Of a DNA stretch of 33,750 bases, positions 1-2,362 are shown in pieces; within the stretch, counting starts at the first letter, position 1, and the number at the start of each line of letters is the position of its first letter. The position numbers and the translations under genes are program-made. The notes below the pieces were generated by a model. The model ran no database searches. It was not told where the DNA came from and saw only the letters and a list, made by a program, of their open reading frames with translations. The DNA is from Cyclobacteriaceae bacterium (GTDB lineage Bacteria; Bacteroidota; Bacteroidia; Cytophagales; Cyclobacteriaceae): NCBI GenBank assembly GCA_026989505.1, contig JALSJF010000013.1:1-33750 (forward strand), written 5' to 3'.

Positions 1-108
1 AGCAACAGGCATGGAAACTCGTTCTGTCAAGTCTCCAAACTTCTTGCTTTCCCAATCCTTTTTAAATTCAGGGAAACGTATTTCAGGCACTTTCTTTAAA
101 TTCCCCAT
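1..108 (-). CDS. hsdS: Type I restriction-modification specificity subunit HsdS, N-terminal fragment
   Basis: Only the first 36 codons are inside the window; the gene runs off the left edge. The N-terminus contains VPEIRFPEFKKDWESKKFGD, the opening typical of HsdS target-recognition domains (V-P-x-[IL]-R-F-P-E-F, then W-E-x-K-K-[LF]-G-[DE]). HsdS picks the DNA target for the HsdM methylase and the HsdR nuclease. The ATG lies at 108-106 and overlaps the end of the upstream phosphatase-like gene by 13 bases, so the two are likely translationally coupled. The specificity itself cannot be judged because both recognition domains are missing. The family call is good despite the short length because of the motif and the hsdM context. 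Confidence 0.85.
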   Translation of the reverse strand, partial: MGNLKKVPEIRFPEFKKDWESKKFGDLTERVSMPVA

Positions 109-581
109 CGTCTTTTAATGTATAATAAGTTTCCACTTTTCGGATTGTAAGGAGGGTAGTACTCGCTTTTGAAAAGGTTGAATGTGTTTGTACTTCTCTC
201 AATCAGGTTATTCTCCAACAAGTACATTAAAGCAATGGAAGGACTTCTTGATTCTCCTAAACTGCAATACACGAAAACTTCATTTCCATTGGTTAAATGC
301 TGATGGATAAAATCCAAAGCAGGATCAATCATTTCATCATTCACATACTTGGGGTCTTCACCATCAATCATATTCAGGTAAATGGCATCTTCTTCACGTT
401 TGTACAAATAATGAGGATGAGCAGGATTACACCCTCTGCCTTGCCAACCCACAATGGATTGGTGAGTAACAAAGCCATTGGCACGATTCAGGGCACAAAC
501 GATTTTCATGCCTTTCTTTCGGGCAATTGGGTATTGTTCTTTTATACCAACGTAGAGTTGTAAATCCTTAATCCTTTTCAT
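96..581 (-). CDS. Dual-specificity/tyrosine phosphatase-like protein inside the RM operon
   Basis: The protein has 161 residues from the ATG at 581-579. A TTG six codons upstream (599) would overlap hsdM; I prefer the ATG because it sits one base after the hsdM stop. It carries the cysteine phosphatase signature C-x5-R as YCSLGESRSP, with Cys106, Arg112 and Ser113. Acidic residues about 30-33 positions upstream (IDGEDP, Asp73 and Asp76) are candidates for the general acid. Small dual-specificity phosphatases hydrolyse phosphotyrosine/phosphoserine or other phosphoesters. The real substrate is unknown and could be a protein, a nucleotide or RNA. The gene is packed between hsdM and hsdS: 1-base gap before, 13-base overlap after. 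It shares the AT-rich composition of the RM genes, so it belongs to that cassette rather than to the host neighbourhood. Its role in the RM system is not known to me. Confidence 0.75.
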   Translation of the reverse strand: MKRIKDLQLYVGIKEQYPIARKKGMKIVCALNRANGFVTHQSIVGWQGRGCNPAHPHYLYKREEDAIYLNMIDGEDPKYVNDEMIDPALDFIHQHLTNGNEVFVYCSLGESRSPSIALMYLLENNLIERSTNTFNLFKSEYYPPYNPKSGNLLYIKRRWGI

Positions 582-582
582 T

Positions 583-2160
583 CTAAAATGGTGTGTCAAT
601 ATTGAGTTCCTTACAATAGGCTCTAAGTTCTTCGTCTGTTTTATTTATATCCTTTTCAAGGCTTTTTAATTGTTTTGAAATAGCAGAAATATCAATCGGC
701 TCTTCTTCCTCTGAAGTATCAATATATCTCGAAATATTTAAGTTGTATTCGTTTTCGGCAAGTTCTTTTAACCCGACTTTTCTACTATATCGTTCTTCAT
801 CAGAACGATTGCGATACGCTTTGATAATTTTATCAATGTCAGAGTCTCTTAGATAGTTTTGATTGGTCGCCCTATCAAAATACTGACTGGCATCAATAAA
901 CAATACATCCTCTGGGTATTCCCTACACTTTTTAAACACCATAATACAAGTCGGAATACTTGTCCCGTAAAAAATATTGGCAGGCAAACCTATTACGGCA
1001 TCCAAATAATTGCGGTCTTCAATCAAGTATCGCCTGATATGTTGTTCCGCTCCGCCCCTGAACAAAGCACCGTGCGGTAAAACAATAGCCATAATACCAT
1101 TTTCTGCCAAATGATGGATCATGTGCTGCACAAAAGCGTAATCGGCTTTGCTCTTTGGGGCTAATTTGCCGTACTGGCTAAAACGGTCGTCACTGGTAAA
1201 TAAAGGGTTGGCACTCCATTTGGCAGAGAAAGGCGGATTGGCTACAATGGCTTCAAACTGCATATCCAAATGCTGAGGGTGTTCCAACGTATCTTCCTGT
1301 TTGATGTCAAACCTGCGGTAATGCACATCATGCAAGATCATGTTCATCCGGGCAAGGTTGTAGGTGGTTCGGTTGAGTTCCTGGCCGTAAAAATTACTCA
1401 CTTCTTCTACTTCTCTGGCTACACGTAAAAGCAAAGAACCCGAACCACAGGTGGGATCATAAACGGATTTCAGTTTTTTCTTGCCGGTGGTTACCAATTT
1501 TGCCAGCACCATACTTACCTGTTGTGGGGTGTAGAATTCTCCGGCTTTTTTCCCTGCTCCGCTGGCAAACTGCCCAATCAGGTATTCGTAGGCATCACCC
1601 AATACGTCTAACTCCGTTTGTTCCAGTTTGAAGTCAATTTTACTCAGGTGAGCCAATACTTTGGCAATGACTTCATTTCTGGCTTCCGGTGTTTTTCCCA
1701 GCTTGGTGCTGTTCAGGTCCATATCCTCAAAGAGGTGGTCAAAGTCCTCTTCGCTGTCCGTTCCCATTGTGCTGTTCTGGATGTTGATGAGGATTTTTTG
1801 GAGGTCTTCCAGAATAAAGTTGCTTACGCCTTCTTTTCCTCCATTTCCGTTTCCTCTTTTGGCTATTTCACTAAACAATTCGGAAGGTTTCAGGAAATAC
1901 CCCAGTTTCTCCAGCGATTCTTCTTTAATGGCTTCCAGCATGGCTTTGCCATTTTTGGAGCCTTCATCTATTTCTTTGTACGTGATCTTGTCTTGCTTCA
2001 GAATGGAGTTAGCGTACATTTCCATCTTCTCAGCAAGGTATTTATAGAAGATAAAGCCCAGGATGTAGTCACGGAATTCGTCTGCATCCATCTTACCTCT
2101 CAGGGTATTGGCTATGTTCCATAGCTGCTGTTCAAGCTGTTTCTTCTGGTCTTCTGACAT
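583..2160 (-). CDS. hsdM: Type I restriction-modification DNA adenine methyltransferase subunit HsdM
   Basis: The 525 residues match the usual HsdM length. The N-terminal HsdM_N helical domain (about 1-150) is followed by an N6-adenine methyltransferase domain. The AdoMet-binding motif I is DPTCGSGSLLL, starting at Asp235, and the catalytic motif IV is NPPF at 308-311. With two HsdM per HsdS the complex methylates adenine in a bipartite target; HsdR would add restriction but is not in this window and may lie beyond the left edge. It follows a small XRE regulator by 7 bases and precedes the phosphatase-like gene by one. The codons are AT-richer than in the genes from 2635 onwards, consistent with horizontal acquisition. 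Confidence 0.96.
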   Translation of the reverse strand: MSEDQKKQLEQQLWNIANTLRGKMDADEFRDYILGFIFYKYLAEKMEMYANSILKQDKITYKEIDEGSKNGKAMLEAIKEESLEKLGYFLKPSELFSEIAKRGNGNGGKEGVSNFILEDLQKILINIQNSTMGTDSEEDFDHLFEDMDLNSTKLGKTPEARNEVIAKVLAHLSKIDFKLEQTELDVLGDAYEYLIGQFASGAGKKAGEFYTPQQVSMVLAKLVTTGKKKLKSVYDPTCGSGSLLLRVAREVEEVSNFYGQELNRTTYNLARMNMILHDVHYRRFDIKQEDTLEHPQHLDMQFEAIVANPPFSAKWSANPLFTSDDRFSQYGKLAPKSKADYAFVQHMIHHLAENGIMAIVLPHGALFRGGAEQHIRRYLIEDRNYLDAVIGLPANIFYGTSIPTCIMVFKKCREYPEDVLFIDASQYFDRATNQNYLRDSDIDKIIKAYRNRSDEERYSRKVGLKELAENEYNLNISRYIDTSEEEEPIDISAISKQLKSLEKDINKTDEELRAYCKELNIDTPF

Positions 2161-2167
2161 CTATCGT

Positions 2168-2362
2168 TTATTTCTTTTGTTCTTGTATCAAGTCTTTCAC
2201 TTCTACTTCAAGGATTTTGGCAATTTCAAAAAGCACTTCTAGCCTTGGTTGCTGTCTGTTTTGCACATATCCGTTCACCATGTTGTAGCTCTTTCCAAGT
2301 TTTTCTGCCAACCAGGTCTGCTTTATACCTTTTTCTTCAAGTACTTTCTTTATTCGGTTCAT
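2168..2362 (-). CDS. Small XRE-family helix-turn-helix regulator
   Basis: A 64-residue protein made of a single Cro/C1-type HTH. The recognisable core is KQTWLAEKLGKSYNMVNGYV (about residues 14-33), followed by NRQQPRLEVLFEIAKILEV, the usual helix 4-5 region. It is the first gene of the RM operon, 7 bases before hsdM. Short XRE proteins in this position often act as controllers that time methylase and restriction expression; that role is inferred here from position. The sequence upstream (2363-2460) is very AT-rich and contains TATTTTGG on the minus strand (2390-2383), a one-mismatch form of the Bacteroidota -7 box, without a convincing -33 element. Confidence 0.88.
   Translation of the reverse strand: MNRIKKVLEEKGIKQTWLAEKLGKSYNMVNGYVQNRQQPRLEVLFEIAKILEVEVKDLIQEQKK

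What the first reader, a model, noticed from the sequence alone, without database searches (positions are those of the whole stretch)
96..2160. Tyrosine/dual-specificity-phosphatase-like gene wedged between hsdM and hsdS
The order XRE-hsdM-phosphatase-hsdS is seen directly, with a 1-base gap before the phosphatase and a 13-base overlap into hsdS. The C-x5-R active-site signature is intact (Cys106, Arg112). Known type I RM systems consist of hsdR, hsdM and hsdS, sometimes with regulators; a phosphatase as an internal, co-translated gene suggests an accessory function. It might control restriction alleviation, remove a phosphate from HsdR/HsdM or a phage-modified protein, or process a nucleotide signal. 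I know of no described mechanism. The AT-rich composition shared with hsdM argues that it travels with the cassette.
Basis: partly seen in the sequence, partly recalled or inferred. Interest (0 to 1): 0.78.

Follow-up and report, generated by a model that had tools for sequence, protein, structure and literature searches.

The report
Phosphatase gene inside restriction-modification operon
A gene for a protein-phosphatase-like enzyme sits, overlapping its neighbour, inside a bacterial DNA-restriction operon, and relatives of it turn up inside other restriction operons and in phages, which suggests an add-on to phage defence whose task is still unknown.

Summary
On the minus strand the contig carries XRE (2168-2362), hsdM (583-2160), a 161-aa dual-specificity-phosphatase-like gene (96-581) and the first 36 codons of hsdS (1-108), with the 1-base gap and 13-base overlap as described. 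The contig ends inside hsdS, so its integrity cannot be judged, and one HsdR query found nothing in the draft genome. Two other Cyclobacteriaceae genomes have the same order followed by hsdR. The protein is a confident VHR/MKP-like model with Cys106, Arg112 and Asp73 conserved, and is under purifying selection. More distant members sit in type I operons at other positions (hsdS-DSP-PrrC-like-hsdR; hsdS-HipA-like-X-DSP-Fic-hsdR), consistent with about three recruitments; but 35 of 36 viral-collection contigs with a member show no hsd genes. In the same hsdM clade the slot after hsdM also holds Fic, PDDEXK_3 or Abi_C genes. The best reading is accessory cargo of a type I RM operon, a known kind (PrrC, DarTG2), with a cargo type that my searches did not find described. 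The substrate (phosphoprotein, or nucleic-acid/nucleotide end) is undecided.

The parts
96..581 (-). dual-specificity-phosphatase-like gene, 161 aa from the ATG at 581 (a TTG 18 bases upstream would add 6 residues)
   Evidence: PF00782 5e-9; AF2 pLDDT 95.4; VIA Z 16.3 to a DUSP
264..266 (-). codon of catalytic Cys106 of the C-x5-R loop
   Evidence: invariant in 21 of 21 aligned sequences
246..248 (-). codon of Arg112 of the C-x5-R loop
   Evidence: invariant in 21 of 21
363..365 (-). codon of Asp73, likely general acid (role inferred from the superfamily)
   Evidence: invariant in 21 of 21
583..2160 (-). hsdM, type I DNA methyltransferase subunit, 525 aa
   Evidence: TIGR00497 7.8e-135, over cut-off
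1..108 (-). hsdS, first 36 codons only; cut by the end of the contig; start codon lies inside the last codons of the phosphatase gene
   Evidence: (window is the contig from base 1)
2168..2362 (-). XRE-type helix-turn-helix protein, 64 aa, 7 bases before hsdM; not seen in the 33 other loci scanned, most with about 1.5 kb of flank

Best explanation
The gene is accessory cargo of a type I restriction-modification operon. It encodes a catalytically equipped cysteine phosphatase of the dual-specificity (VHR/MKP) fold that is made together with HsdM and HsdS from adjoining and overlapping genes (order and overlap shown; co-translation inferred). The family is shared between phages and defence loci and is found in RM operons at several positions, where other operons carry Fic, Abi, PrrC-like or nuclease genes (shown). 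I infer that it works as a second defence layer or protective regulator, most likely by taking phosphate off proteins phosphorylated during infection (by phage kinases, or by HipA-like kinases of such loci), less likely by trimming phosphates from nucleic-acid ends or nucleotides. Confidence is about 0.8 for embedded RM cargo with an active phosphatase and about 0.4 for the phosphoprotein substrate.
For: Same hsdM-DSP-hsdS order, with hsdM touching DSP and a 13-base DSP/hsdS overlap, in G079 and G165, both followed by hsdR. Other slots: hsdM-RhuM-X-hsdS-DSP-AAA_13 ATPase (PADLOC PDC-S06, weak PrrC match)-hsdR in L096, hsdS and DSP overlapping by 4 bases, and hsdM-hsdS-HipA_2-X-DSP-Fic-hsdR in L016. 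A 64-aa DSP remnant with the C-x5-R loop lies between hsdS and hsdR in G775. In all, 5 of 10 genomes with family members carry it inside a type I operon. RM linkage needs 3 gains or losses on the family tree of 33 rows. dN/dS 0.07 and 0.08. AF2 model pLDDT 95.4, pTM 0.91, matches DUSPs/MKPs. A HipA-like kinase gene lies near DSP in 2 loci (L016, with one gene between; L052, next to it).
Against: 35 of 36 IMG/VR contigs with a member, and the two phage records scanned (L008, L051), show no hsd genes in the DNA held; nor does the annotation around it in phage VpV262. The closest non-RM relative (67% identity) stands alone in an element with integrase-like ORFs (by eye) and a SIR2-like gene. The nearest HsdM (G028, 82%) has no phosphatase. 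The window's own hsdS is cut and no HsdR was found in its genome. No kinase gene was seen by eye among ORFs of 100 aa or more around the window-type genes. Phage neighbours in the families listed are terminase, HNH, a HAD_PNKP and an AP-endonuclease-like gene rather than protein kinases. Window-type proteins have Tyr, not His, before the catalytic Cys. No activity was measured.
Confidence: 0.6

Rival explanations
1. It is a nucleic-acid or nucleotide phosphatase: it removes phosphates from RNA/DNA ends or a small nucleotide, for instance on tRNA cut by PrrC-like or Abi nucleases of the same operons.
For: In a Vibrio phage the gene overlaps by one base a HAD_PNKP (polynucleotide kinase phosphatase) gene; in a Spiroplasma plasmid it follows an endonuclease IV gene by 2 bases; 3 of 13 family members scanned pass the Pfam cut-off of the Rit1 DUSP-like domain (L016, L052, L012); in L096 it is directly followed by an AAA_13 ATPase gene that I call PrrC/RloC-like.
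Against: PF00782 scores better than PF04179 in 13 of 13 members scanned and passes its cut-off in 9 of 13; the window's own Rit1 match is below cut-off; the closest solved structures are protein phosphatases or their kin; the general-acid Asp is kept, which RNA triphosphatases of this fold are recalled to lack.
Confidence: 0.25
2. It is a passenger: a phage or mobile-element gene that landed in the hsdM-hsdS junction, a tolerant slot, with no functional link to RM.
For: Many members are in viral contigs without hsd genes; the slot after hsdM also holds Fic, PDDEXK_3 or Abi_C genes in relatives; the nearest HsdM (G028, 82%) has no phosphatase and abuts hsdS.
Against: Purifying selection; gene kept with both junctions in 2 HsdM lineages; separate occurrences in other type I operons; Fic and Abi neighbours are families with known toxin or abortive-infection members (recalled, and PMC3710099 passages).
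Confidence: 0.15
3. It is a captured phage counter-defence enzyme (phages use it to undo host kinase-based defence) that now protects or tunes the RM operon's own kinases or toxins.
For: Many phage-contig members; HipA-like kinase gene near it in L016 and L052 and a HipA-family toxin gene about 3 kb away in an Alteromonas plasmid.
Against: No kinase seen by eye near the window-type genes in L010/L011; no protein kinase among the neighbour families listed for phage loci; phage use of it is untested.
Confidence: 0.2

Closest known systems
PrrC embedded in EcoPrrI (type IC RM); passages in PMC12707154 and PMC3710099
   Same: accessory gene embedded in an hsd operon
   Different: PrrC is an ATPase-nuclease that responds to RM inhibition and cuts tRNA; here a phosphatase of unknown substrate
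DarTG2 embedded between hsdS and hsdR with the RptR repressor gene upstream; passages in PMC12255303
   Same: small DNA-binding gene upstream, defence cargo inside a type I operon
   Different: cargo is a toxin-antitoxin pair in the hsdS-hsdR slot; here a single phosphatase in the hsdM-hsdS slot, and an XRE gene that relatives lack
VHR/MKP dual-specificity phosphatases (PF00782)
   Same: fold, C-x5-R loop and conserved Asp
   Different: about 20% identity in the best rows; 133 of 161 residues align to the best chain; Tyr before the Cys in the window type
Vibrio phage VpV262 ORF44 (Q8LT65)
   Same: same family by fold: TM 0.87/0.90, 22% identity
   Different: phage gene, no RM gene in the annotation around it

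Membership tests
Dual-specificity phosphatase catalytic domain (PF00782) | profile match over curated cut-off | tested here: met
   36.5 bits against 33.5
Dual-specificity phosphatase catalytic domain (PF00782) | C-x5-R loop and general-acid Asp | tested here: met
   Cys106, Arg112, Asp73 invariant in 21 of 21
Dual-specificity phosphatase catalytic domain (PF00782) | DSP fold | tested here: met
   predicted model, pLDDT 95.4; VIA Z 16.3, rmsd 2.8, 133 aligned to 4yr8_B
Dual-specificity phosphatase catalytic domain (PF00782) | His before the Cys of the loop (recalled as usual, not as required) | tested here: not met
   Tyr105 in window, L018, L019 and L042; His in the other 17 rows of the alignment
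Dual-specificity phosphatase catalytic domain (PF00782) | phosphatase activity | not testable with these tools
   no assay
Type I restriction-modification operon | hsdM | tested here: met
   TIGR00497 450.5 bits against 242.75
Type I restriction-modification operon | hsdS | tested here: inconclusive
   36 codons, then contig end; full-length in relative L010 (PF01420), split by a frameshift in L019
Type I restriction-modification operon | hsdR | tested here: inconclusive
   none found in the draft genome with one query; present in both relatives
RM-embedded defence cargo (PrrC/DarTG2 kind) | gene inside the hsd operon in several genomes | tested here: met
RM-embedded defence cargo (PrrC/DarTG2 kind) | anti-phage effect | not testable with these tools
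   no assay
Rit1 DUSP-like domain (PF04179) | profile match over cut-off | tested here: not met
   16.5 bits against 22 for the window protein; met for L016, L052 and L012

The most novel reading that the evidence does not exclude
Type I RM operons carry a phosphatase arm: a family of dual-specificity-type phosphatases, shared between phages and RM operons, that acts as a guardian or regulator by undoing phosphorylation (by phage or HipA-like kinases) or by acting on RNA ends made by the PrrC-like or Abi proteins encoded beside it. It would be, as far as my searches show, an undescribed phospho-signalling component of a type I RM system.
Probability: 0.25. Interest if true: 0.75.

Novelty: new variant of a known kind. 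Interest (0 to 1): 0.52.

Why it matters
Accessory genes inside hsd operons are how PrrC and DarTG2 were tied to phage defence. A cysteine phosphatase found in such operons at several positions would add protein (or RNA-end) dephosphorylation to the RM arsenal, and would give phage-encoded members of the family, now labelled only 'dual specificity phosphatase' or 'hypothetical protein', a testable role in the contest between phage and host.

Tried and rejected
Chance insertion with decay: rejected as sole account because of purifying selection and conserved junctions. A PADLOC or PHROG defence family: no PADLOC family matches the phosphatase at E up to 1; the best PHROG match is 0.0071. Conserved XRE-hsdM-DSP order: the XRE gene was found in none of the 33 other loci scanned, so it is left out of the unit. 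Single vertical origin of DSP in the hsdM clade: the HsdM tree needs 2 changes; loss, gain and transfer cannot be told apart.

Searches that led nowhere: the window protein as single query found no IMG/VR relative, A4 and L042 as queries found only the contig already known; E. coli genomes, none; order of G542 (unnamed), 0 of 188, without a positive control; genome contigs with A2 found only the two loci already known, so there is no named wide survey of cellular genomes. Rows dropped before the count of 10 genomes: G272, G294, G319, matched at E 1.9e-5 to 4.2e-5 over 55-71 residues (26-29 bits), taken as ordinary DSPs. Papers: seven searches for a phosphatase in hsd or defence loci listed 20 of 184, 20 of 86, 0, 1 of 1, 0, 15 of 122 and 12 of 2,146 papers; I saw titles and abstract starts only, and none of them names such a gene; passages of PMC12839542 gave no hit for DSP, tyrosine phosphatase or HipA. 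No supplements were seen. So 'not described' means not in these listings.

Full report
What is there. The window is contig C13 from its first base. On the minus strand lie an XRE-type gene (2168-2362), hsdM (583-2160), a 161-aa phosphatase-like gene (96-581) and the first 36 codons of hsdS (1-108). The stated 1-base gap, 13-base overlap and Cys106/Arg112 are right. The stretch is AT-rich (phosphatase 38% G+C, hsdM 42%, the window beyond 2400 50%). hsdS runs off the contig, and a search of the draft genome (96% complete) with one related HsdR found nothing, so this genome's RM system cannot be called complete.

What the protein is. It passes the Pfam cut-off of DSPc. AlphaFold2 on 21 aligned family members gives pLDDT 95.4 and pTM 0.91. 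The best solved structures are human DUSPs, MKPs, VHR and a serine/threonine/tyrosine-interacting protein (Foldseek TM about 0.6-0.7; VIA Z 16.3, rmsd 2.8, 133 residues); the best viral model is ORF44 of Vibrio phage VpV262 (TM 0.87). Asp73, Cys106, Gly109, Ser111 and Arg112 are invariant in 21 of 21 sequences; Tyr58 and Leu59 are invariant too and His40 nearly so. That the stretch around residues 36-60 is special to this family is my inference; it was not mapped against the eukaryotic enzymes. Window-type members carry Tyr where the superfamily motif (recalled) has His before the Cys.

Conservation in the operon. Of 196 genomes drawn from the same family, 4 have a match: the window, G079 and G165 (80% identity) and G022 (39%, no RM genes found near). 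Both have hsdM-DSP-hsdS-X-hsdR with hsdM touching DSP and DSP overlapping hsdS. X is a 129-aa gene in one and an AbiD/Abi_2 gene in the other. dN/dS is 0.07 (window/G165) and 0.08 (G079/G165); the other 4 pairs are saturated at synonymous sites.

History. Of the 30 best hsdM loci held (L060-L089; L060 is the window itself), the phosphatase follows hsdM in 3; hsdS follows in 20; Fic in 3 (no hsdS within the DNA held); PDDEXK_3 and then an hsdS-like ORF in 1; Abi_C in 1; 2 could not be judged (cut, or an unrelated gene next) (hsdS was called by eye from the printed sequence except L061 and L079, scanned). On the HsdM tree the phosphatase needs 2 changes: G165 and G079 sit in a starred clade with G053, G171 and G120, which lack it, and the window lies outside that clade, as does G028, which lacks it. 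Loss, transfer and double gain cannot be told apart.

The wider family. Further searches (order 5 of 390, phylum 3 of 395, order of G806 5 of 128, class 1 of 295, genus of G165 1 of 8, order of G542 0 of 188, class of G806 6 of 185; genomes overlap between calls, queries and thresholds differ) give, 10 genomes with a family member after dropping 3 weak general DSPs. In 5 of 10 it lies inside a type I operon: window, G079, G165, G806 (hsdM-hsdS-HipA_2-X-DSP-Fic-hsdR) and G775 (a 64-aa remnant between hsdS and hsdR, beside a D12 methyltransferase gene). G943 has it beside a HipA-like kinase gene, 4.4 kb from a truncated type IIG enzyme gene. For G022 and G1458 (a short contig) no RM genes were found; G936 and G859 hold fragments with stops.

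Viral collections. 36 distinct IMG/VR contigs carry a member (24, 10 more, 2 more). One of 36 (L096) has hsd genes in the DNA held, which is sometimes short, by phmmer with 2 HsdM, 3 HsdS and 3 HsdR queries: hsdM-RhuM-X-hsdS-DSP-AAA_13 ATPase-hsdR-GmrSD, hsdS and DSP overlapping by 4 bases. I call the ATPase PrrC/RloC-like from PDC-S06 and a weak PrrC match in PADLOC; its nuclease part was not tested. Whether that contig is viral was not tested. L042, the nearest to the window type (67%), is in an element with integrase-like ORFs (by eye) and a SIR2-like gene. Named phage records: 5 (two Vibrio phages, VpV262 twice, Tunturi_3); plasmids: 2. On the family tree of 33 rows RM linkage needs 3 changes, gains or losses; the G775 remnant was not in it.

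Substrate. Context pulls two ways. For phosphoproteins: the DSP fold and two loci with a HipA-like kinase gene close by. For nucleic-acid ends: a HAD_PNKP gene overlapping it in a Vibrio phage, an endonuclease IV gene just before it in a Spiroplasma plasmid, a PrrC-like gene right after it in L096, and Rit1 scores over cut-off in 3 of 13 members. Of 157 neighbouring ORFs called mechanically for 28 phage, plasmid and IMG/VR loci, 70 were scanned, mostly the longer ones, some of over 150 aa left out: terminase large subunit and HNH lead; no protein kinase is among the 25 Pfam and 25 PHROG families shown of 34 and 120.

Known and new. Accessory genes inside hsd operons are known: PrrC, Abi2, and RhuM- or Fic/Doc-like neighbours of PrrC/RloC genes (passages of PMC3710099 and PMC12707154) and DarTG2 (passages of PMC12255303). 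My seven searches for a phosphatase of this kind, with capped listings, showed none. So this is a new cargo of a known kind, with an unproven role.

Noticed in passing
L019 7180-8465 (= L011 4577-5862): hsdS of Belliella filtrata is split into two half-length ORFs by a frameshift at a homopolymer A run; real half-subunits, phase variation or a sequencing error cannot be told apart.
   Followed up: partly
L076 3239-4369, L077 198-1328, L087 198-1328: Closely similar Fic genes (Fic_N plus Fic) follow hsdM in three related genomes, the place where the window has the phosphatase; hsdS is not in the DNA held.
   Followed up: partly
L016 5620-7318 and L052 9213-10939: A HipA-like kinase gene (PADLOC candidate PDC-M66A in both) with a second gene after it (PDC-M66B in L016 only) occurs with the phosphatase in two genomes, in different gene order: a possible kinase-phosphatase module.
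   Followed up: partly
L043 7977-10280: A phage ORF in which the phosphatase domain is fused to a part that looks terminase-like by eye; several phage members lie near terminase large subunit genes.
   Followed up: partly
L010 3427-5589: A gene with an NA-iREase2 domain (PF22723) and a NACHT match just under cut-off directly after hsdR.
   Followed up: no
L096 14056-16152: A GmrSD type IV restriction gene directly after the type I operon.
   Followed up: no
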